From: Gammaproteobacteria bacterium
GTDB taxonomy: Bacteria; Pseudomonadota; Gammaproteobacteria; UBA4575
DNA length: 48,293 nt
Direction of reading: 5' to 3'
NCBI GenBank assembly: GCA_026710875.1
Contig: JAPOQE010000018.1
Span: forward strand, 1-48,293
Under the pieces are notes generated by a model. The model was given only the letters and a program-made list of their open reading frames with translations, was not told the DNA's origin and did not search any database. The position numbers and the translations under genes are program-made. Positions 163-33,555 of the stretch are shown piece after piece. Numbering within the stretch: position 1 is the first letter of the stretch; each line of letters starts with the position of its first letter.

Positions 163-407
163 GGGGGCGACACAAGGGTTGGTTGACCCGGGCAGCGGCA
201 CCCTGGGGGACGGCGAACGCCCGGGAGGACTTTTCGGCGAAACGACTGCCCCACGTACGTGGCCGTGTCACTGCCCAGCGAAGCGCGGTAGTGACGCGGC
301 CACATATCTGTCCCGAATCCAGTCAGTACCGCATCTTTCGGACTCCGGGTCCGAGTGCCCCGCGAATTACGGCGTCGTAATGTTAGCCAATGATAAGAAG
401 ATTTTCC
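163..407. other. Left junction region without a gene; contains a large inverted repeat
   Basis: I see no convincing gene between the barrel-protein stop and the promoter of the recombinase leader. The stretch should contain the left boundary of the island. The only clear structure is the inverted repeat at 259-303, plus a 12-base palindrome at 251-262. Confidence 0.5.
259..303. repeat. Imperfect 17-bp inverted repeat with a short loop
   Basis: Arms at 259-275 (GTGGCCGTGTCACTGCC) and 287-303 are inverted repeats with two mismatched positions, separated by about 11 bases. There is no T-run after it, so it is not a standard intrinsic terminator. It lies between the chromosomal flank gene and the mobile module, so it could be a recombination or boundary site, or a terminator for the flank gene. 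Confidence 0.55.
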
Positions 408-435
408 GTGACAGGATTGCACTGAATGGTATACT
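408..435 (+). promoter_or_regulatory. Sigma-70 type promoter of the structured leader and recombinase
   Basis: The -35 like GTGACA is at 408-413, followed by a 16-base spacer and the -10 like TATACT at 430-435, preceded by TG at 427-428 (extended -10). The same TGnTATACT occurs at the matching place before the second module at 33012-33020. Transcription would start near 442-443, a few bases before the conserved leader sequence begins at 451. Confidence 0.6.
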
Positions 436-442
436 CACCGTA

Positions 443-983
443 ACGATTTTGTACCGAGGCCATGGCGGTATATCCATGGCAAAGAGGCACCTTCGGATCG
501 TGTAACCGGTGCATCAGCCGCAAGGCTGCGATCCATCTTCAATATCAGCCTGTATCGCTGTACTCGGCGCGCAGGTACTCGGAACCAGGCCCCCTGGGCT
601 CGGTCCTGATCTTTAATACCAGGCTTCCTGCCTGCAGGCACGTGCGGGGTATCCCTGCGCGCGTCATCCAAAACGCTGTGTGCACGGCACATCGCCCGGA
701 CATTTTGGTCAGGCGTTCGCTGTGCTGTACACCCGGCCATTTGTTTCAACCCCGTGGAGTGGATCCACGTAACTTCAAAGGAGGTGTAAATCCTATCGCC
801 CGTATATCGGGCATGTTGACTGTCGCAGGTCCGTCTTCCACAGAAGTCCTCCTGCGTGGCCTTGACTGAGGCCGATATAAGTCATTACGGGCGTCGTGTC
901 CCGTGAGCGTATTCGCGCAAGCGAACCTGTACCGCCAAGGCGGCCAGGGGCTCAGAAACACTCACCAGAAAGGAAAGACACGT
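443..983 (+). ncRNA. Long structured leader RNA upstream of the recombinase, copy 1
   Basis: About 540 nt without a credible gene but dense in hairpins. Hairpin 1: arms 459-465 and 474-480 around loop CGGTATAT. Hairpin 2: arms 487-491 and 508-512. Hairpin 3: CAGCC 515-519 and GGCTG 524-528 capping a GNRA loop GCAA. GGATCG at 495-500 in the hairpin 2 loop is complementary to CGATCC at 529-534, a likely pseudoknot. Further hairpins: 798-812, 887-904, 912-925 (loop GCAA again) and 932-943. The same order of elements, with compensating changes, occurs at 33028-33555 before the second recombinase. Established knowledge: a conserved RNA named int-alpA has been reported near integrase and alpA genes, and alpA follows here. 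Whether this matches that model, and where the RNA ends, I cannot determine. A structured single-stranded DNA role is an alternative. Confidence 0.6.
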
Positions 984-1850
984 ATGAAGACTTTGAACCA
1001 CAACCTGAAACAGCTCTGCCGAACCTGCCGGGAAGGCAGCTATGCCACGCAGAGGAACAGAGAGAGGATATTGACCCAGGCTGCCAAAGAGCTGCATGCG
1101 ATGGGCTACCGGAAGATGCAGGCCAAATCGCTCAAGCCGAAACACATCGAGGCCCTGGTCAAGCACTGGCAGGAAAGGGATCTGTCCATTGGAACCATAA
1201 AGAACCGGATGGCCACCCTGCGATGGTGGGCCGAGAAGGTCAACAAGCAGAACGTCATGGCCCGATCGAATGAATTCTATGGCATTCCGGACCGAAGGTT
1301 CGTCACCAACGAATCCAAAGCCAGAGATCTCACAGAAACCCAGCTTGACAGGGTAAAAGATGAACATGTGCGCATGAGTCTTGAACTCCAGAGAGCCTTT
1401 GGCCTGCGGCGCGAGGAGGCCATGAAGTTCCAGCCAAGCCATGCCGATAAAGGCGACCACATTCGACTGAAGGCCAGCTGGACGAAGGGCGGTAAGCCAC
1501 GAACGATTCCTGTTCGAACGGATACTCAGAGAGCTGTCCTGGACCGTGCACGGGCACTGGCCGGCTTCGGCTCACTGATCCCGCCCCATCGAAGCTACGT
1601 GCAGCAACTGAGGATCTACGAGGGCAATACCACGAGGGCCGGACTCTCGAGCCTGCACGGGCTGCGTCATGCGTATGCACAGGAGCGCTACGAGGAACTG
1701 ACCGGCTGGAAGTGTCCGGCCACCGGAGGGCCGGACCGCACGGCCTTGGGTCCGGAACAAAAGGAACTGGACCACCAGGCCCGGCTGATCATCAGCCAGG
1801 AGCTCGGGCATGAGAGAGAACAGATCACAGCAGCGTACCTGGGAAGGTAG
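984..1850 (+). CDS. Tyrosine recombinase (phage-type integrase), copy 1
   Basis: A 288-aa site-specific recombinase. Catalytic residues are visible in order: Arg142 in GLRREE, Lys168 or Lys171 in the WTKGGKPR beta-hairpin, His225 and Arg228 in HGLRH, His276 in ELGHE, and nucleophile Tyr285 close to the C-terminus (TAAYLGR). The first ~110 residues form a helical SAM-like DNA-binding region, as in the Phage_int_SAM_2/Integrase_1 type families. I chose the ATG at 984 because AAGGAAAG lies just upstream and because the second copy (33556) then has exactly the same length. A ~540-nt structured leader precedes it and alpA follows immediately, so int and alpA are probably one transcript. The catalytic set looks intact. 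Identity to the second copy is roughly 70 percent by eye, without gaps. Confidence 0.9.
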   Translation: MKTLNHNLKQLCRTCREGSYATQRNRERILTQAAKELHAMGYRKMQAKSLKPKHIEALVKHWQERDLSIGTIKNRMATLRWWAEKVNKQNVMARSNEFYGIPDRRFVTNESKARDLTETQLDRVKDEHVRMSLELQRAFGLRREEAMKFQPSHADKGDHIRLKASWTKGGKPRTIPVRTDTQRAVLDRARALAGFGSLIPPHRSYVQQLRIYEGNTTRAGLSSLHGLRHAYAQERYEELTGWKCPATGGPDRTALGPEQKELDHQARLIISQELGHEREQITAAYLGR

Positions 1851-1891: not shown

Positions 1892-2074
1892 ATGAACCAC
1901 AGGGTTGTAAGACTGAAGGATGTCCAGCGCATGACCGGACTCTCCCGCTCCACGATCTACGCCCAGATCGCCAAGGGCAATTTCCCGAAACAGATCAAGC
2001 TGACCGGGGCACGCTCGGTCGGCTGGCATGAAAGCGCGGTGATCCAGTGGATCGAATCCAGGCAGCAGACTTAA
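1892..2074 (+). CDS. alpA: AlpA-family small DNA-binding regulator
   Basis: A 60-aa protein with the MerR-like helix-turn-helix of the AlpA family: RLKDVQRMTGLSRSTIY forms the HTH and GWHESAVIQWIESR the wing and last helix. AlpA proteins control excision or expression of prophages and islands. The ATG at 1892 has GAGGA eight bases upstream and gives the usual family N-terminus; upstream in-frame starts (GTG 1853, ATG 1877) have weaker sites. It lies 41 bases after the recombinase stop, so the two are likely co-transcribed. It probably acts as the excision or regulatory factor of this module. The second recombinase module has no alpA after it. Confidence 0.85.
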   Translation: MNHRVVRLKDVQRMTGLSRSTIYAQIAKGNFPKQIKLTGARSVGWHESAVIQWIESRQQT

Positions 2075-2230: not shown

Positions 2231-3457
2231 TCATCTTTCCTGTTGCTTTCTTATGTGATCAATGAACTCACGAATGTCCATCAACCACATTTGCTGGACA
2301 TTCGTGTAGGTGCTATGTAACTCACTCGGCAAGACCAACTGAACCTCGTTGGCCTGCATTTCATTTGTCTGGTTTTCGCTTATCCCCGGCTCAAGTGTCA
2401 AAAGATGCTTTGCCGATATCCTGGCTGCTTCTGACAGAACCTGACGCCATCTGTCCTTGCAGGTTGACTTGACACCAAGCATGGAAAGACACGCTTCCGG
2501 AAAGTTCCTGTCATGGTATTCAGTGGCACCGGGGAAAAGGAAGTCAGGCCTTGAGTTGTGTTCCGTAACTGCCTGCCGTTGATATTTCAATTCGCAGATA
2601 CGAAAGATTTCTCCAAGATGATGCTCAAGGGCATATCCGGCGCGTGCCTTTCTTCTGTTCTGTACACTGAGGGAGAAGCTGATAAACCCGTCCACATCAG
2701 CAACCTCACCGGACCAGAACCCGTCTCTCAAACGCTGGGCTACTGCATGGTGCTCCATACGGCGAAACAGCATTTCCTCATGACCCATCCATGCAAGCAG
2801 GGCGGTATCAGGGTCATCCCGCGGATCGATATCAGGGAGTGTATTTCGGGCAAAACCGGAAAATTCAGCAGTCGTTGGAAAAACTCCCTTGAAGTGTTCG
2901 AGCAACCCATCCAGCCGGTCAGCTTCTGGTTCCTCAATTTCTATATCCAGCTCTTTCAGAATAAACCGTGCAGCAAAGCCTACCTGCTGATCATCGCCAT
3001 TTTCCAAGTCCTGGTAAGTGAAGCCTGCGCCTATCTCCAGAGCTGAAAGACCAAAAAGCCATGCAAGACGATTTTCTTCACCGCTTCCTCTGGAGACCAC
3101 AATGATCATCAGTTCGTCGGATGGCCGTTTTGCAATTATGAGTAGATCCTCCTCACTGGCACGTTCCATCACAGGGTTACCTCTGAAGTAAAGCCTGTAT
3201 TCAGCAGCACGGTTCGGATTCTGTTCGCGTGCGTCATACCACGTAACAGATGAATCTTCGGAGAACCCCTCATTTTCATCACCCAGCCAGACAAACCGGG
3301 TCGGCCTGTCTGTCTGCCTTTCCAGGCCCAGCAGTGTTTTCAGCGGTTCGACACCATTGAACTCATGCTGGTTAGATCGTTCAGGATGGGCTTCCACAGC
3401 ACTCAGCCGTTTTGCAATCACACCCGTAAAGTATTCAGATAGGTACCCTTTTCTCAC
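2231..3457 (-). CDS. EcoRII-like type IIE restriction endonuclease
   Basis: A 408-aa protein, close to the ~400-aa length of EcoRII. The C-terminal half carries the PD-(D/E)XK fold of the EcoRII-C family: Pro304-Asp305 in SRPDFLF, then Lys330 in LGVKSTCKDRW, followed by the conserved region KHLLTLEPGISENQ. The N-terminal ~180 residues would be the effector-binding, autoinhibitory domain. EcoRII enzymes cut before CCWGG and need two sites. It is the last gene of a minus-strand operon with a Dcm/M.EcoRII-like methyltransferase and Vsr. Its start overlaps the vsr stop by four bases (ATGA type), so translation is coupled. CCWGG specificity is inferred from the enzyme pair. It looks full length. 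Confidence 0.85.
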   Translation of the reverse strand: MRKGYLSEYFTGVIAKRLSAVEAHPERSNQHEFNGVEPLKTLLGLERQTDRPTRFVWLGDENEGFSEDSSVTWYDAREQNPNRAAEYRLYFRGNPVMERASEEDLLIIAKRPSDELMIIVVSRGSGEENRLAWLFGLSALEIGAGFTYQDLENGDDQQVGFAARFILKELDIEIEEPEADRLDGLLEHFKGVFPTTAEFSGFARNTLPDIDPRDDPDTALLAWMGHEEMLFRRMEHHAVAQRLRDGFWSGEVADVDGFISFSLSVQNRRKARAGYALEHHLGEIFRICELKYQRQAVTEHNSRPDFLFPGATEYHDRNFPEACLSMLGVKSTCKDRWRQVLSEAARISAKHLLTLEPGISENQTNEMQANEVQLVLPSELHSTYTNVQQMWLMDIREFIDHIRKQQER

Positions 3458-18127: not shown

Positions 18128-18475
18128 AGTATCTGACGTGTAATATGGCGAAATGATTGCGGATGTAGAATTGTATAGCAATTGAAATTAGCTGTATAAA
18201 GCACTGCATATCTGGTCACAGTATCCTTAGATTACAGGTTTGAGTCTTAACTGCTACATCAAATTTCTCTGCAGTATCCGCATGCTCCGGGTGCTAGGAA
18301 GTCTCGACTAGGTATATTCATGTTGATGGGGGATAGTGCCCCATGAGCAAATCGCATTACATAAATCTGTTTTTCAGTTCTGGATATCAAGTGCGCCAGC
18401 AACACGTAGCATGTAGGGGAAAGAGCACGAATACTAATCAAAGTGCAATAGGCACTAGAGGCATACAGAGCTTCT
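18128..18475. other. Intergenic region, nothing recognised
   Basis: About 350 bases between two plus-strand genes. No gene, clear terminator or repeat could be supported. Confidence 0.4.
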
Positions 18476-25379: not shown

Positions 25380-26627
25380 ATGGCATCCATCTTTGCTTGG
25401 CTCGATCATTCAGAAGGTGACCGTCGTAAAGCACTCGATGTCGTTGACCTGTTCCGTGAACAAGACACTCGGGATGAGCTTGGCATTGGAACAGTTAGGG
25501 ACGCGCTTGCAGATTCATTGTTCCCCGGAATCAGCACGATCCAGACAAGGGCCAAGTACCTGCTGTTTATTCCATGGATATATAAGGTTCTTGAAGCTGG
25601 CAAGACAAAATCGAGTCATGTGGCCAGACTGGCACGCCGGCATGAAATTGATCTGATCTACCAGTTACTCAAGTCGGACGATACGGACGGCGTAATCGGT
25701 AAGGATGCGAAAGCCGGTTTGCAAAGATTACCAAGCTCAGTGTATTGGGCGGGTCTCAGTGTTTTTGGTATCCGTCGATACCAGGGTTCGCTGGATCAGT
25801 ATCATCGGTCACTTGATGGATTCTCCCTGAGTCGACGTCAGATTCATGCCTCTGCCGAGGATGGCGTTGTCGAACTGTTTAAGCCGCAGACCAACTGGCA
25901 TGAGGGTTTGCCACCTGCACTGGACGGGTTCCCTGAAGGAGCTTCGCTTCATCTGAAGGTAGAAGAGGCTGAGTATCTTCATCAGCAGATAATGACAAAT
26001 GTACCTGGTACCCTGATCGCATTTCTGGTCGACCAGGGGGATTGGTGGGATGCAGTCAGTTTTCCTTGGCACCATCCACAAGTTGGTAAATGCGCAAACC
26101 ATGTGAAGGTGCAGCTGCATCATGCGGAACTCTTCTCGCTGGTGATGCTGGGGGCTGCTCTGCTCTATAACCTGATGCTGGCGGAAAAGCGGGCGTCGAG
26201 CCGCAATGATGGAGTAGGCTTGCCGGAGGGTCTTGTTGGTCATTATCGAAGTTTACTGGGCGATTGGTATGGAGAGGTCGAAGACAAACGCCGAACATTA
26301 GTCCAGTGGGTTGATTCCCGCTCTGATTTCTGGGAGATCATTCATCGTGTAAATCCGCGTATTCCAATTCCAACTGTCCATTTCATAAATACCTGGACAG
26401 ACCTTGCAGCTGGCACAGATGGAGTCGACACTCTCATAAGTGCACCTGCAGCTAGAGACCTCATTCATCATCGTGAGCGTCGACTGAAACTAACGCTGGC
26501 TCGCCTTGATAACCCCAGAGCGCTTGAGATGTGGAGCGGTGCTGCCGGTACACAGCAACTCACATATCGTTGGCAGCAAGCTCAGACCATTGTGCAGGAT
26601 ATTCTCCGTGGTCTGGGAAGGGGGTAG
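25380..26627 (+). CDS. DUF6361-like protein of a helicase/PLD module
   Basis: A 415-aa protein. Its N-terminus (FAWLDHSEGDRRKALDVVDLF ... DELGIGTVRDALAD ... TIQTRAKYLLFIPWIYK) matches what I know of the DUF6361 family, whose members are found next to PLD-like nucleases and helicases in defence loci. No catalytic motif can be named. It is followed after six bases by the PLD-like gene, and that one overlaps the helicase, so the three are one unit. The role is perhaps scaffold, recognition or specificity; this is inference. Confidence 0.7.
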   Translation: MASIFAWLDHSEGDRRKALDVVDLFREQDTRDELGIGTVRDALADSLFPGISTIQTRAKYLLFIPWIYKVLEAGKTKSSHVARLARRHEIDLIYQLLKSDDTDGVIGKDAKAGLQRLPSSVYWAGLSVFGIRRYQGSLDQYHRSLDGFSLSRRQIHASAEDGVVELFKPQTNWHEGLPPALDGFPEGASLHLKVEEAEYLHQQIMTNVPGTLIAFLVDQGDWWDAVSFPWHHPQVGKCANHVKVQLHHAELFSLVMLGAALLYNLMLAEKRASSRNDGVGLPEGLVGHYRSLLGDWYGEVEDKRRTLVQWVDSRSDFWEIIHRVNPRIPIPTVHFINTWTDLAAGTDGVDTLISAPAARDLIHHRERRLKLTLARLDNPRALEMWSGAAGTQQLTYRWQQAQTIVQDILRGLGRG

Positions 26628-26633
26628 GGGATA

Positions 26634-28481
26634 GTGCTGGCGCCGAAAGATCGTACTCTGCTGCTTGAATCACTGCGCCCACCGCCGGGATTCCGGCTGG
26701 ATGCCGTGGTATCGACGACTTACTCCCTGGACCTTATGGCGCTATTGGTTGCGCCACTTGCCTTTACCTTCTTTGACTGGGAAGGGGACGATGGTCATCC
26801 TACCAAGGACCCGAATGCACTGCTGGAAGCGTTGCGCCGTAATGTAGATCGTATCCATGTGTTTTGTCAGGCAGGCCAGATCGCTGTGCCAAAGACCTAT
26901 CGACTGCTCTTTGGCTACCTGGAATCAAGTGTCCATGAGGTGCGGGCGGTCAGGGATGGAGGCGTGTTTCACCCGAAAGTGTGGATAGTGCGCTACGTAG
27001 CTGATGGCAAGCCAGCGCAGTATCGCCTGCTCTGTGCCTCCCGTAATCTTACTTTTGATCGTTCCTGGGACACCCTGCTTGTACTGGATGGAGTAGTAGG
27101 CAAGGAGGCGACAAAGAAAAATGAACCACTTTCACGGTTCATCCGTTCGTTGCAGGCGATGGCTGTACAGGAGCTAACGGATAATACAAAGAACACGTTG
27201 GCGGAGTTGGCGAGGGAGCTTGACACTGTAAAGTTCCAGTTGCCGGAGCATATTGAAGAAATTAAATTCTGGCCGTTCGGTTTGCCTGATGAGCAAGATA
27301 TATGGCCGTTCCCGGATAGCGCGGACCGGGGCCTCGTGATCGCACCATTCGTCGCGGAAAGCACTCTCAGTCGTCTGAATATCTCCGGTGAGCAGACGCT
27401 TGTTTCCCGCGTCGACGAGTTGGAAGCGATTGATCCCGACCAAATAGGCGACTACGAAATTTTCGCCTTGAGTGAGGGAACAGACATAGAGCAGGAAGAA
27501 GGTGTTGAGCCGGATGATGAATCGGACACAGGAAATCTACTTTCTGGCTTGCATGCCAAGTTGTTTGCTTTTGACGAATCGGGAAAAGGGCGGGTGTGGA
27601 CCGGCTCAGCGAATGCCACGAACGCTGCATTTCACCAGAATGTTGAGTTTCTCGTGGAGATGCGAGGACAAAGCAAGCACATGGGAGTAGAGGCGATTCT
27701 CCACCCTCAACAGAAAGGTATCAGCGTACTACGCGATCTCCTTGAGCAGTTTTCACCAGACGAAGAGGGTGGGGCTGACTCGACTCAGCAGGCTCTGGAG
27801 AATTTGCTCCTGCGTCTTCGCCGTTTTGTCGTTGACCTGGAGTTCGTGGTGCATGCTGAAAAGTCTGAAGAGAATCTATTCGATCTCAGGCTGTCTTCCA
27901 CAAAGCAACCGGATTTTCCAGATGCAGAATTCGATCTGCAATGTTGGCCACTGACGCTCAGGCAGGAGGCGGGCGCGGAGCGCCTGATACCGGATGGAGG
28001 CTGGTCGTCCTCGTTCTCGTCAGTATCGTTTGAGGGGCTGACGACCTTTTTTGCCTTCGAGGGGCGGATCTCTGTCGATGGTAGGTCAGGCGCTTGCCGG
28101 TTCATACTGAATCTCCCTTCACAGGGATTCCCTGAAAACCGGCGTCATCAACTGCTGCGCTATATGCTGAAGGATCAGCAGCAATTGATGCGCTACCTGT
28201 TTCTGCTGCTTGGTGAAGAGGGGGCGCTATCGCTTTCTGAAATCTCCGGTTCCTCACGGTATGCAGGAACAGGGAACGGAGGTTTTCATGCAAAAATTCC
28301 AATGTTAGAAGCGCTCGTTAAGGCACTGGAACGTGCCCCGGAAAAGATCGATCAGGTTGCCCACCTGGTGACCGACCTCCAGAACACCGAGGAAGGGAGG
28401 GCACTTCTCCCGCAAGAGTTCGAGCAGATCTGGCATCCCCTGTGGGAAGCGCGAGAGGAGTTAACAAGACGTGGGGATTAG
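26634..28481 (+). CDS. Phospholipase D-like (HKD-type) nuclease of the helicase module
   Basis: A 615-aa protein starting at GTG 26634, with AGGGGAT just upstream. Two H-x-K motifs are seen: HPKVWIVRY near residue 112 and GLHAKLFAFD near residue 306. Each is followed by the small-residue pattern of PLD domains (ASRNLTFD and GSANATNAAF). PLD-type nucleases use the two His residues across a pseudo-dimer to cut DNA phosphodiesters. The C-terminal ~270 residues are unassigned. It overlaps the helicase start by 11 bases. I infer that it is the nuclease component driven by the helicase. Confidence 0.82.
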   Translation: MLAPKDRTLLLESLRPPPGFRLDAVVSTTYSLDLMALLVAPLAFTFFDWEGDDGHPTKDPNALLEALRRNVDRIHVFCQAGQIAVPKTYRLLFGYLESSVHEVRAVRDGGVFHPKVWIVRYVADGKPAQYRLLCASRNLTFDRSWDTLLVLDGVVGKEATKKNEPLSRFIRSLQAMAVQELTDNTKNTLAELARELDTVKFQLPEHIEEIKFWPFGLPDEQDIWPFPDSADRGLVIAPFVAESTLSRLNISGEQTLVSRVDELEAIDPDQIGDYEIFALSEGTDIEQEEGVEPDDESDTGNLLSGLHAKLFAFDESGKGRVWTGSANATNAAFHQNVEFLVEMRGQSKHMGVEAILHPQQKGISVLRDLLEQFSPDEEGGADSTQQALENLLLRLRRFVVDLEFVVHAEKSEENLFDLRLSSTKQPDFPDAEFDLQCWPLTLRQEAGAERLIPDGGWSSSFSSVSFEGLTTFFAFEGRISVDGRSGACRFILNLPSQGFPENRRHQLLRYMLKDQQQLMRYLFLLLGEEGALSLSEISGSSRYAGTGNGGFHAKIPMLEALVKALERAPEKIDQVAHLVTDLQNTEEGRALLPQEFEQIWHPLWEAREELTRRGD

Positions 28482-31400
28482 GGACAGCGAACTGCCTGAT
28501 CTTGGAGAGATCAACCGCAGCTTGAAAGATTTTCAGCGACGTACAGCGGCTGCTGTATTTCACAGGCTGTATGAACAGGCACGGTCTACCCATCGGTTTC
28601 TCGTGGCAGATGAGGTGGGTCTTGGAAAAACACTAATCGCAAGGTCTGTTATCGCACGTACGCTGCATCATTTGTGGGATCAGGTCGATCGGATCGATAT
28701 TGTGTATATCTGCTCCAATGCAGACATTGCCCGGCAGAATATCAAGCGGCTGAATGTGCTGGGCGATGAGGGCAAGACGCTACCAACGCGCATCACGTTA
28801 TTGCCCATCAAGTTGCGCGATCTGAATAAGAATCGAATTAATTTCATTTCATTTACACCGGGTACTTCGTTTGATTTAAAAAGTAATCTCGGCGTAGCCC
28901 AGGAACGGATGCTGCTCTATTGGTTGTTGAAAGGCATCTGGCATTATTCCGGAACCGCTCCAATGAATGTATTTCAGGGAGGCGTACAGACCAAACGGTT
29001 CCGAAACCGGTTAAAAGCCTTCTCAGAAAAGCACCACATTGATCGAACGCTGGCAAAGGAGTTCAGGCGGACAGTGAGTGAGCGTGTGCGAAAGGAGAAG
29101 GACGAGGGTGAGTGGACATTGCGTGAGCGGTTCGACTGGCTTTGTCAGGAGTATCGGCGTTCAGATTCAAGGATTTCGCGTGAAGCCAGGCTTGAGCGTT
29201 CTGCCTTTGTGGGAAGACTGCGAAGTTTACTCGCTGAGACCTGCGTCCGAATGCTGGAACCCGATCTGGTTATTCTCGATGAATTTCAGCGTTTCAAGCA
29301 CCTTCTCAGCGGGCAGGATGATGCGAGTGTGCTGGCGCGCAAGTTATTCGAATACTCCGATGATTCGACTGCGGTGCGCGTGCTCTTACTCTCTGCCACG
29401 CCTTACAAAATGTATACGCTGCCAGACGAGAGTGATGATGAGGACCACTATCAAGATTTCATTGACACGATGGGCTTCCTGTTGCGCGATAAGCAGAAAG
29501 TGGAGAAATTTGCGGACCTGCTGCGGGAGTACCGTTACGAATTACTCCGATTTAATGATCAATCCCCAGATCGGCTCGAAAGCATAAAGTTGGATATCCA
29601 GAAATCGCTACGTCGCGTTATGGCCCGCACTGAACGGTTGGCAATGACTGATGATCGTGCAGGCATGCTCACCCAGATGGAACCAAAGGATGTAGAGCTA
29701 CTGGCAAACGACATCCTCGCATACGTGGAATTACAGTCGATTGCGCGTGAGCTGGAGATGCCGAATACGATCGAATACTGGAAGTCGTCGTCGTACCTGC
29801 TTAATTTCATGGAAGACTACAAACTGAAGCGGACATTCCATGATGCACTGGATGGTGAGGGTAAGACGGAAGTTATTGCGCGAGCACTGTCCAAAGTACA
29901 ACACCTGTTGCTTTCCTGGGATGACATTGAAGCTTACAGGAAGCTGGATCCACGGAACGCACGCCTTCGGGGCCTTATTAAGCAGGTCATTGACACAAAG
30001 ATGTGGCAGTTGCTTTGGCTGCCCCCGTCTCTGCCATATTATGAACTGGAAGGGTCATTCCGCAATCGCACCCATTCGCAGATAACCAAGCGGCTGATAT
30101 TTTCAAGCTGGCGAGTTGTACCCAAGGTTATTTCGACCATTCTAAGTTACGAAGCTGAGCGGCAGGCGGTCAAATCATTTGAGTCAGGCGCCCTGAATAC
30201 GGAGGATGAGCGAGAACGAAGAGGCCATACCCTGCTATTGCGGATTTCGGTGTCGAAAGAACGGCCCACGGGCATGCCGGTGCTGGCTCTAATGTACCCA
30301 TCAATCTCACTGGCTCGCCGCTATGACCCACTGAGTCTGGCAAGGAAGTGCGGCAATGGAGAGAAGCCCACATTAAAGCAGTTGCAAGGAGTTATCCGGG
30401 CAGATATTTCTAAAGGACTCGAGGCGCTGACAATGCCGATGGATGAATCCCGTGTCGATGAGCAATGGTATTGGGCGGCGCCAATTCTTCTGGATAGACA
30501 CTACTATCCCAAGGCAACACAGGAATGGTTTGGCCAATTTGATCTCGAAGGTCAGTGGGCAGGAGAAGATTGTAGTGAAGACGACGCATGGTATGAGCAC
30601 GTCGACCGAGCCAGACAGTTACTCAACGGTGAGCTGACCTTAGGTCGACCGCCAGATAACCTGGCAGAGGTTCTGACTCTGTTGGCCTTGGGTGGGCCGG
30701 CCATCTGTGCACTGCGTGCTATGGATCGTTTTACAGGTCCAACTTTGGCAAGTCATGTGGGTGCAAGAAATGCGGCAGGAAGGATTGGCTGGGCATTTCG
30801 AAGTCTTTACAACCGGGTTGAGGTAGCTGCGCTCTTACGCGGAATGAAGCAATCGGATCCGTACTGGCGGCGAGTGCTTGAATATGGTGCAGAAGGTTGT
30901 TTGCAGTCTGTGCTGGATGAATATGTACACATTCTCAAAGATTCACTCGGTCTTGTTGGTGAAGAGCCAGAGGAGATGGTTGGGGATATTGCCGAAGCAA
31001 TACAAACTGCGCTAACTGTCCGGGCGTCAGCACTGACTGTGGACGATATCCGGGTGGGAAATGGCGGCGTAACAGTCAGGACGCATCGACTCCCGTCGCG
31101 CTTCGCCATGCCTTTTGGCCAAGGGCGGGATGAGGAGAGTGGCGACACGGCTGCGTCGCGTGCGCAGAAGGTACGCGAGGCATTCAATTCACCTTTCTGG
31201 CCTTTCGTTGTTACCTCGACTTCTATCGGCCAGGAGGGCCTCGATTTTCACTGGTATTGCCATGCCATTGTGCATTGGAATTTACCCACCAATCCCGTGG
31301 ATCTGGAGCAACGTGAAGGGCGCGTGCATCGCTATAAGGGACATGCAGTACGCAAGAATATTGCGAGCCAATATAGTCATCATGCTATGAAATCGCGCGA

Positions 31401-31704
31401 CAAAGATCCATGGTACGGGATGCTGGAAGCAGGCAGAAAGGACCGGCAGAAAGGGGAAAATGACCTTGTGCCGTACTGGATTTACCCGATCGATGGTGGG
31501 GCGCGTATCGAAAGATATGTGCCATCACTTCCACTGACACGAGACAGGCAGCTTATCGATGCGCTGCGTCGGTCTTTGGCGGTCTATAGGTTGGTGTTTG
31601 GTCAACCCAGGCAAGATGACCTGGTTGAGTACCTGATAAAGCATGTTCCGAAGGACAGGCTGGACGAACTGGTCGGACGCCTGAAGATTAATTTAAGCCC
31701 ATAG
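28471..31704 (+). CDS. Large superfamily II (SNF2/DEAD-like) helicase of the module
   Basis: A 1077-aa protein from GTG 28471, with GAGGAG ten bases upstream. Motifs: Walker A region VADEVGLGKT near 46-55, motif II LVILDEFQRF near 269, motif III LLLSATPYK near 307, and in the C-terminal helicase domain STSIGQEGLDFHWYCHAIVHWNLP (V) and EQREGRVHRYKG (VI). The order and the large insert between the two RecA domains fit helicases found with PLD nucleases in restriction-like systems. It overlaps the PLD gene, so translation is coupled. No methyltransferase is part of the operon, which separates it from ordinary type I or III restriction and from complete DISARM loci. Confidence 0.85.
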   Translation: MGIRDSELPDLGEINRSLKDFQRRTAAAVFHRLYEQARSTHRFLVADEVGLGKTLIARSVIARTLHHLWDQVDRIDIVYICSNADIARQNIKRLNVLGDEGKTLPTRITLLPIKLRDLNKNRINFISFTPGTSFDLKSNLGVAQERMLLYWLLKGIWHYSGTAPMNVFQGGVQTKRFRNRLKAFSEKHHIDRTLAKEFRRTVSERVRKEKDEGEWTLRERFDWLCQEYRRSDSRISREARLERSAFVGRLRSLLAETCVRMLEPDLVILDEFQRFKHLLSGQDDASVLARKLFEYSDDSTAVRVLLLSATPYKMYTLPDESDDEDHYQDFIDTMGFLLRDKQKVEKFADLLREYRYELLRFNDQSPDRLESIKLDIQKSLRRVMARTERLAMTDDRAGMLTQMEPKDVELLANDILAYVELQSIARELEMPNTIEYWKSSSYLLNFMEDYKLKRTFHDALDGEGKTEVIARALSKVQHLLLSWDDIEAYRKLDPRNARLRGLIKQVIDTKMWQLLWLPPSLPYYELEGSFRNRTHSQITKRLIFSSWRVVPKVISTILSYEAERQAVKSFESGALNTEDERERRGHTLLLRISVSKERPTGMPVLALMYPSISLARRYDPLSLARKCGNGEKPTLKQLQGVIRADISKGLEALTMPMDESRVDEQWYWAAPILLDRHYYPKATQEWFGQFDLEGQWAGEDCSEDDAWYEHVDRARQLLNGELTLGRPPDNLAEVLTLLALGGPAICALRAMDRFTGPTLASHVGARNAAGRIGWAFRSLYNRVEVAALLRGMKQSDPYWRRVLEYGAEGCLQSVLDEYVHILKDSLGLVGEEPEEMVGDIAEAIQTALTVRASALTVDDIRVGNGGVTVRTHRLPSRFAMPFGQGRDEESGDTAASRAQKVREAFNSPFWPFVVTSTSIGQEGLDFHWYCHAIVHWNLPTNPVDLEQREGRVHRYKGHAVRKNIASQYSHHAMKSRDKDPWYGMLEAGRKDRQKGENDLVPYWIYPIDGGARIERYVPSLPLTRDRQLIDALRRSLAVYRLVFGQPRQDDLVEYLIKHVPKDRLDELVGRLKINLSP

Positions 31705-33011: not shown

Positions 33012-33020
33012 TGCTATACT
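33012..33020 (+). promoter_or_regulatory. Extended -10 promoter of the second leader
   Basis: TGCTATACT at 33012-33020 is an extended -10 element. The equivalent TGGTATACT lies before the first leader at 427-435. No good -35 box is visible 17 bases upstream. The conserved leader sequence begins at 33039, 18 bases after the -10, close to the 15-base distance in copy 1. Confidence 0.55.
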
Positions 33021-33027
33021 GGCCCCG

Positions 33028-33555
33028 CATTTGATTTAGTACCGAAGCCACTGCGGTATATCCGTGGCAATTAGGCACCTCCGGATCGTGTAACAGGTGC
33101 ACAGCGGCAACTCCGTCGATCCACCTTCAATGTCCCTCAGGGACTTAGGGCAAGTCTGTAACGGGCCTGTCCATCTTCAATACAGGCAACGCCTGTACCT
33201 ATTCACAACTCGCTTGTGAAGTTCTGCTATGCAGCTACGTGCTCAGTGCGCAAGTCTAACCTTTGAGGTTATGGCTGTGCTGTGTGCCTGGCCCGTATCT
33301 CAATCTGGCGGTAGGTATCCGCACAACGTAATAGAGGGGATGAGGTCGTTGTTAACGACTACCCTGATAAGGGCATCTGGACCTGTACAGGGGTCCATCT
33401 TCTACAGAAGGCAACCGGTATTGGTTTGACTGAGTCGTATACCAGTCGAAATGGGGGGTGGTATCCCGTAATCGTATGGCAGCAATGCAAACCAGTTGTC
33501 TGCTCCAGCGAGCAGGAAGACCCAGAAACACTCAACTGACAAGGAGAATACACGA
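33028..33555 (+). ncRNA. Long structured leader RNA upstream of the recombinase, copy 2
   Basis: This region aligns with 443-983 over its first ~95 bases and has nearly the same total length. Hairpin 1: arms 33047-33053 and 33062-33068 with the same loop CGGTATAT; a U-A pair of copy 1 is a C-G pair here. Hairpin 2: GCACCT 33075-33080 with AGGTGC 33095-33100. The pseudoknot partners are GGATCG 33083-33088 and CGATCC 33117-33122. Other stems include GTCCC-GGGAC and ACAGGC-GCCUGU (around 33133-33195), TTCACAA-TTGTGAA near 33205-33225, and CTGCTC-GAGCAG near 33500-33515. The downstream part has diverged strongly in sequence but is still rich in hairpins. No credible gene lies inside. It ends at the recombinase start codon. 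Confidence 0.6.

What the first reader, a model, noticed from the sequence alone, without database searches (positions are those of the whole stretch)
33028..33555. Second copy of the structured leader shows compensating base changes
Compared with copy 1, hairpin 1 keeps its loop CGGTATAT, but a U-A pair becomes C-G. Hairpin 2 shifts from 5 to 6 pairs with matching changes on both sides (U 33080 with A 33095). The pseudoknot halves are kept in both. After ~33135 the primary sequence diverges, yet hairpins remain dense and total length is nearly equal (about 528 against 541). Structure is kept more than sequence, which points to a functional RNA rather than shared junk.
Basis: seen in the sequence. 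Interest (0 to 1): 0.8.

Follow-up and report, generated by a model that had tools for sequence, protein, structure and literature searches.

The report
Conserved structured RNA before integrase-like genes
A roughly 530-base folded RNA, not in the public RNA family library, sits in front of an integrase-like gene on many bacterial mobile islands, and its setting suggests it helps DNA move between cells rather than merely preceding the gene.

Summary
The leader is real RNA structure, although copy 2 is the weaker of the two copies. With homologues, the 3' domain shows 68 double compensatory changes on its tree (column re-pairing null: mean 4.3, maximum 16), and the 5' domain 21 (mean 1.0, maximum 11). 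Rfam has no match. Between copies 1 and 2 alone only one 5' pair is doubly changed; the 'matching change' at U33080/A33095 is one-sided. Copy 2 scores 41 bits against 127 for copy 1 and does not fold better than shuffles.

Each intact module reads: DNA palindrome, promoter, about 530 nt RNA, tyrosine-recombinase gene (PF12834+PF12835). In many genomes, including the window's own (contig C153), that gene heads a PFGI-1-type ICE conjugation operon with TraD, yet only 2 of 26 genomes have the usual MOBH relaxase. Several RNA copies persist without an intact recombinase gene. The closest known system is SGI1, where an RNA between oriT and the recombinase-like relaxase gene mpsA is required for transfer. 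Best explanation: a transfer (relaxosome) RNA. Expression and transfer are untested.

The parts
259..303 (.). DNA palindrome upstream of copy 1 (GTGGCCGTGTCACTGC / GTAGTGACGCGGCCAC), candidate oriT
   Evidence: comparable palindrome in 67 of 86 near and 12 of 17 distant loci; controls 0 of 85 and 0 of 103; arms covary
430..435 (+). TATACT, predicted -10 box of the copy 1 leader; start expected near 443
   Evidence: TATACT with at most 1 mismatch 12-50 nt before the RNA in 28 of 31; shuffles mean 6.4, maximum 13
443..983 (+). copy 1 structured leader RNA (541 nt)
453..535 (+). copy 1 5' domain: hairpin with pseudoknot A, then pseudoknot B enclosing further stems
   Evidence: A4
777..787 (+). 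AAAGGAGGTGT, Shine-Dalgarno-like element inside the RNA, not followed by a conserved ORF
814..966 (+). copy 1 3' domain (nine helices incl. pseudoknot, ending AGAAACACTCACC)
   Evidence: A3 and R1, (126.8 bits)
984..1850 (+). tyrosine recombinase P0001 (PF12834 + PF12835), candidate relaxase
   Evidence: R, K, H, R, H, Y residues invariant in 32 relatives
1892..2074 (+). AlpA-type regulator
18257..18410 (+). relic of the 3' domain without a recombinase gene, just before a NERD-domain gene
   Evidence: 19.7 bits, E 0.0035
33015..33020 (+). TATACT, predicted -10 box of copy 2
   Evidence: sequence
33028..33555 (+). copy 2 structured leader RNA (528 nt), diverged and partly decayed; no palindrome found upstream
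33041..33123 (+). copy 2 5' domain, 21 of 25 pairs kept
33376..33536 (+). copy 2 3' domain
   Evidence: 41.3 bits
33556..34422 (+). tyrosine recombinase P0002 (72% identical to P0001)

Best explanation
The leader is a conserved structured RNA that belongs to a conjugative transfer (mobilization) module. The module is: palindromic DNA site (candidate oriT), sigma-70-type promoter, RNA of about 500 nt, and a tyrosine-recombinase gene annotated as integrase that probably acts as the relaxase. Proposed mechanism: the RNA is made from its own promoter as the 5' part of the recombinase transcript, folds into a 5' double-pseudoknot domain, a variable string of hairpins and a 3' multi-helix domain, and then works with the recombinase (and perhaps the coupling protein TraD) to assemble or license the transfer complex at the nearby palindrome, as sgm-sRNA is proposed to do for SGI1. 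The window's two islands carry defence genes and no T4SS genes among the ORFs scanned, and would be mobilized in trans by the ICE on contig C153 of the same genome, which has the same module in front of its conjugation genes. Shown here: conserved RNA structure, promoter-like element, palindrome, gene order, lack of MOBH relaxase in most of these genomes, persistence of the RNA without the gene. Inferred: transcription and processing, relaxase activity, oriT function, RNA-protein binding.
For: RNA structure. More G-U than A-C cells on the sense strand (111 to 46 and 14 to 5), while the palindrome is nearer to even (G-T 18, A-C 11), so leader = RNA, palindrome = DNA. Link to the recombinase: R1 hits 49 of 52 held-out loci, and two of the three misses have 1 and 20 nt upstream; many of the 52 are near copies of model sequences. 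RNA and protein distances correlate (r 0.67; null maximum 0.24). Transfer context: PilL2, TIGR03759, PFL_4695 and/or TraD behind the gene in L052/L205, L064 and own C153; TIGR03759 in L098; TraD in L206. TIGR03759 in 12 of 12 genomes (these 12 were picked by me, mostly for a like downstream ORF pattern). MOBH relaxase in 2 of 12 and 0 of 14 genomes, and both hits lie on contigs other than those of the modules. Small plasmids: a T4SS coupling gene right behind this recombinase in 4 of 15 plasmids fetched (L150, L151, L188, L190); 147 of 225 plasmid records with the gene are typed non-mobilizable. Role beyond the gene: RNAs without an intact downstream gene in L160, L167, L172, L174, L183, L186. 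Precedent: SGI1 oriT, sgm-sRNA, mpsA in the same order, RNA essential for transfer but not for MpsAB expression (PMC9299015: abstract and sections read).
Against: No expression or transfer data. The gene is annotated integrase and keeps all catalytic residues, so true integration is possible. Known recombinase-like relaxases lack the N-terminal core-binding domain (PMC8152469), whereas this one has PF12834. 11 of 15 plasmids fetched have no T4SS coupling gene directly behind the gene (one of these, L152, is unannotated), and L156, L192 and L193 also carry a MobA/MobL-type relaxase. MOBP relaxase occurs in 2 of 12 genomes; MOBF, MOBQ, MOBV, MOBC and MOBT were not searched in genomes. 19 of 86 near loci lack a palindrome by my criterion, copy 2 among them. 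Distant plasmids L150, L152-L156 give no R1 hit, so the RNA is not shown there. If the RNA worked only in trans, solo copies would not need to keep it; some could be decay products (L160 is).
Confidence: 0.58

Rival explanations
1. Cis-regulatory leader: the RNA controls translation or transcription of the integrase, for example by hiding its start or by a ribosome standby site at AAAGGAGGTGT.
For: Position directly before the gene on the same strand; Shine-Dalgarno-like element inside; co-divergence with the protein.
Against: Conserved RNAs remain where the gene is lost: L167, L172, L174 keep only about 25 nt of it, L183 and L186 none, with R1 scores of 53-124 bits. In the SGI1 precedent the RNA is not needed for MpsAB expression.
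Confidence: 0.22
2. RNA partner of a true site-specific integrase: the recombinase inserts the islands at the palindrome or element end, and the RNA guides or scaffolds the reaction (like bridge RNA of IS110, recalled).
For: Catalytic residues invariant; left end of elements sharp near -765 in one group; solo copies lie next to cargo such as AbiE-like and Fic/HsdM-like genes (names by eye).
Against: In islands such as L029 and L059 a second, P4-type integrase lies between the module and a tRNA gene; the palindrome occurs once per locus, not at both ends; no attR found; operon position with T4SS genes.
Confidence: 0.13
3. DNA-level structure (att site or single-stranded oriT DNA folding) rather than RNA.
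For: Strong hairpins; the palindrome itself behaves like a DNA dyad.
Against: G-U over A-C asymmetry in the leader, promoter-like box in 28 of 31, orientation always towards the gene.
Confidence: 0.05
4. Chance or shared junk between two copies.
For: Copy 2 alone folds no better than shuffles.
Against: Covariation in 32-sequence alignments with controls.
Confidence: 0.01

Closest known systems
sgm-sRNA of Salmonella Genomic Island 1 (PMC9299015; abstract, sections 2.1 part 1, 2.6 and Discussion read)
   Same: RNA encoded between oriT and a tyrosine-recombinase-like relaxase gene, running towards that gene; mobilizable island hitching on a conjugative helper.
   Different: Core about 200-280 nt of a 650-700 nt transcript that also spans oriT; MpsA has a separate MpsB; no sequence or structure homology tested here (SGI1 sequence not in hand). 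Here the RNA is about 530 nt with its own promoter downstream of the palindrome and is found on ICEs too.
Tyrosine-recombinase-like relaxases MobK, MpsA, TcpM (MOBM) (PMC8152469: abstract, section 2.1 and Discussion read; PMC6414798: abstract, passages, one section)
   Same: Tyrosine-recombinase catalytic residues; inverted-repeat site upstream of the gene and its promoter (MobK oriT lies just upstream of the mobK promoter).
   Different: Those lack the N-terminal core-binding domain; this family has PF12834 fused to PF12835. Relaxase activity not shown.
PFGI-1 class (MPF_G) ICEs
   Same: PilL2, TIGR03759, PFL_4695, TraD, TIGR03747, TraC ATPase behind the module.
   Different: The usual MOBH TraI relaxase is absent from 24 of 26 genomes searched; RNA plus recombinase module at the head of the operon.
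GOLLD, ROOL, int-alpA and bridge RNAs (all recalled, not looked up)
   Same: Large or integrase-linked RNAs on mobile elements.
   Different: No Rfam match other than tRNA in 19 loci and the window; only chance-level hits at relaxed thresholds.

Membership tests
Any Rfam 15 family | Score at or above a curated gathering threshold | tested here: not met
   Only tRNAs in the window and 19 relatives; relaxed search of both copies gave chance hits only
sgm-sRNA (SGI1) | RNA lies between oriT and a recombinase-like relaxase gene, same direction | tested here: inconclusive
   Order palindrome, RNA, recombinase found, but palindrome = oriT and recombinase = relaxase are inferred
sgm-sRNA (SGI1) | Essential, trans-acting transfer factor | not testable with these tools
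   Needs mating assays
sgm-sRNA (SGI1) | Sequence or structure homology | not tested
   SGI1 sequence was not in hand
Tyrosine-recombinase-like relaxases (MobK, MpsA, TcpM) | Catalytic R-K-H-R-H-Y set incl. Tyr nucleophile | tested here: met
   R142/R143, K168, H225, R228, H276, Y285 invariant in 32 proteins and present in copy 2
Tyrosine-recombinase-like relaxases (MobK, MpsA, TcpM) | No core-binding N-terminal domain (as described in PMC8152469) | tested here: not met
   PF12834 at residues 1-83, E 1.4e-20
Tyrosine-recombinase-like relaxases (MobK, MpsA, TcpM) | Nicks cognate oriT | not testable with these tools
   Biochemistry needed
PFGI-1 class ICE | T4SS gene set next to the module | tested here: met
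   Own C153 and L205; not in the window itself among ORFs scanned
PFGI-1 class ICE | MOBH TraI relaxase | tested here: not met
   0 of 14 and 2 of 12 genomes

The most novel reading that the evidence does not exclude
A widespread class of ICEs and their satellite defence islands uses a ribonucleoprotein relaxosome: a large, multi-pseudoknot RNA acting with a tyrosine-recombinase relaxase at a palindromic oriT. SGI1's sgm-sRNA would then be one outlying example of a general RNA-dependent mode of conjugation, and many 'relaxase-less' ICEs and 'non-mobilizable' plasmids would be mobile.
Probability: 0.33. Interest if true: 0.94.

Novelty: new variant of a known kind. Interest (0 to 1): 0.82.

Why it matters
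It would give a structured RNA family absent from Rfam, a likely relaxase for conjugative elements that seem to have none, and a testable role for RNA in conjugation, which to my knowledge rests so far on one system (SGI1). The same gene family sits on small plasmids of Acinetobacter, Shewanella and others, including one carrying mcr-4.3 (PMC9769806, passages read), where it is read as a phage integrase.

Tried and rejected
Rfam at curated and relaxed thresholds: nothing. The idea that the palindrome is an integron-like attC repeated through the cargo was dropped: one site per locus. A long direct repeat marking the right end was not found. Conserved mini-ORF behind AAAGGAGGTG: starts and stops do not agree between relatives (read by eye). 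Free energy as a test: fails for copy 2. Literature searches for an RNA in front of PF12835 genes, or for PF12835 as relaxase, found none; only open-licence PMC papers are held. PMC11104534 (passages) lists PF12835 among integrases frequent in marine elements it calls non-conjugative.

Limits: the A3 and A4 structures were derived from the same alignments on which they were counted, so the slide control leans towards them; the re-pairing null keeps phylogeny. Rows dropped: A3 used 32 of 37 de-duplicated leaders (five with long inserts or poor fit left out by hand); A4 used 32 hand-picked sequences, without the Halieaceae type whose 5' domain differs. Palindrome control windows came from near loci and from reversed upstream sequences only. 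One search covers 369 genomes with strict filters, so weak RNAs are missed.

Full report
1. The observation. Copy 1 (443-983) and copy 2 (33028-33555) precede two intact PF12834+PF12835 tyrosine recombinases that are 72% identical. The two leaders align well at the 5' end (87% over 69 nt) and again near the gene. One pair of hairpin 1 is doubly changed. The hairpin 2 'matching change' is one-sided (U492 and U33080 are the same base; C507 became A33095). Both pseudoknots are identical in both copies and so uninformative by themselves. Copy 2 keeps 21 of 25 pairs of the 5' domain (copy 1: 24) and 34 of 42 of the 3' domain on an alignment fitted to the model (copy 1: 37). Copy 2 as a whole does not fold better than shuffles (11 of 100 as good), copy 1 does (0 of 100).

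2. Homologues settle it. A protein scan gave 80 genome loci, most of them labelled Gammaproteobacteria, and 3 viral-collection loci. Two domains were aligned. The 3' domain (A3, 32 sequences, 47 pairs in 9 helices including a pseudoknot between a GACC loop and GGTC) has 87.7% of cells paired, 34 pairs changed on both sides, 201 such cells against 62.9 in shuffles, and slides at 32-44%. The 5' domain (A4, 32 sequences, 25 pairs: hairpin GCCAC/GTGGC with pseudoknot ACCG/CGGT; stem GCACC/GGTGC interlocked with GGATCG/CGATCC) has 94.5% paired and 15 pairs changed on both sides; the measure 'further pair types' was not above shuffles. Because the structures were read from these alignments, a tree-aware null was added: Fitch reconstruction on a FastTree tree, with 3' columns dealt out anew among 5' columns. 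Double compensatory events: 68 against mean 4.3, maximum 16 of 1000 (3' domain) and 21 against mean 1.0, maximum 11 of 1000 (5' domain). Pseudoknot B alone has 11 events; pseudoknot A has none because it hardly varies. G-U cells outnumber A-C cells 111 to 46 and 14 to 5, which marks the sense strand as the structured RNA.

3. Extent and link to the gene. A covariance model of the 3' domain (R1) found the RNA directly upstream of the recombinase in 49 of 52 loci not used to build it; two of the three misses have only 1 and 20 nt of upstream sequence, and the third (L046) has a damaged gene. Many of these 52 are close to model sequences. The window holds three places: copy 1 (126.8 bits), copy 2 (41.3) and a relic at 18257-18410 (19.7, E 0.0035), with no other hit there up to E 10. 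Among distant plasmid relatives only L151 matched (23 bits, E 4e-4); L150 and L152-L156 did not. In a class sample R1 hit 13 of 369 genomes; the protein at E 1e-60 hit 20 of 369. RNA and protein distances correlate (Mantel r 0.67, null maximum 0.24).

4. RNA without the gene. Of 21 RNA loci scanned for the protein, L160, L167, L172, L174, L182, L183 and L186 had no match. L160 has a truncated gene and an IS-like ORF; L182 has a group II intron RT-like ORF between RNA and gene fragment; L167, L172 and L174 keep only about 25 nt of the gene; L183 and L186 have a shortened RNA (5' hairpin, AAGGAGGTG, 3' domain) and palindrome but no gene trace. So the RNA is kept apart from the ORF in at least five places.

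5. The palindrome and promoter. Upstream of the promoter lies a palindrome around GTCACTA...TAGTGAC whose arms covary (GTCATTAC/GTAATGAC, GTCCCTAC/GTAGGGAC). By a fixed criterion (arm of 9 or more) it is in 67 of 86 near and 12 of 17 distant loci, and in 0 of 85 downstream windows and 0 of 103 reversed upstream sequences. G-T 18 and A-C 11 in its outer arms suggest a DNA element. TATACT with at most one mismatch stands 12-50 nt before the 5' domain in 28 of 31 (shuffles: mean 6.4, maximum 13).

6. Setting. Directly behind the gene in L052/L205, L064 and in the window's own genome (contig C153) stand PFGI-1 class ICE conjugation genes (PilL2, TIGR03759, PFL_4695, and TraD where the stretch reached it); L206 has TraD and L098 has TIGR03759. 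TIGR03759 occurs in 12 of 12 genomes that I picked, mostly for similar downstream ORFs, near the module in each by comparing coordinates. The MOBH relaxase usual for this ICE class is found in 2 of those 12, on contigs other than those of the modules, and in 0 of 14 further genomes including the window's. MOBP occurs in 2 of 12. Other relaxase families were not searched. In plasmids, 225 records hold the gene, 147 of them typed non-mobilizable; of 15 fetched, 4 have a T4SS coupling gene right behind it, three Rhizobiaceae plasmids also have MobA/MobL-type relaxases, and the rest have no coupling gene next to it or are unannotated. The window's islands carry defence genes: EcoRII/Vsr/Dcm, ZacABC and others.

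7. Reading. In SGI1 the order is oriT, sgm-sRNA, mpsA; the RNA is essential in trans for transfer, is not needed for MpsAB expression, and its mechanism is open (PMC9299015). MpsA, MobK and TcpM are recombinase-like relaxases; MobK's oriT lies just upstream of its promoter and its Tyr is needed for nicking (PMC8152469). The module here works like that in layout. It is not filed as a member: the protein has a fused PF12834 domain that those relaxases are said to lack, and homology of the RNAs was not tested. Confidence 0.58 for a transfer RNA, 0.22 for a plain regulatory leader, 0.13 for an RNA partner of a true integrase.

Noticed in passing
window 25380-31704: Complete ZacABC defence gene set (PADLOC ZacA, ZacB, ZacC, E down to 0) between the two leader copies.
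   Followed up: no
window 18257-18410: Relic of the leader's 3' domain directly upstream of a NERD-domain gene, without any recombinase.
   Followed up: partly
They look like non-autonomous versions.
   Followed up: partly
L052 about 3235-3345 and relatives L034, L036, L040, L044, L045, L103, L183: Sharp left element end GCTGTCCAC..., an inverted-repeat stretch of about 110 bp at about -765 from the gene.
   Followed up: partly
L029, L056, L059, L071, L079, L087, L093, L094, L095, L097, L099, L101, L104-L108: A tRNA gene lies at a steady 2.2-2.6 kb from the start of the recombinase, with a second integrase between them in the four checked (L029, L059, L099, L107).
   Followed up: partly
L160, L183, L186, L036: TTACACTGTAA dyad upstream of the palindrome or near the left end of the element.
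   Followed up: no
L194 (pSBP2_mcr4) and L188 (A. baumannii 14.6 kb plasmid): PF12835 gene beside mcr-4.3 in the first; followed by a T4SS coupling gene in the second.
   Followed up: no
L182 (own genome contig C100): Group II intron RT-like ORFs lie between an RNA copy and a fragment of its recombinase gene.
   Followed up: no
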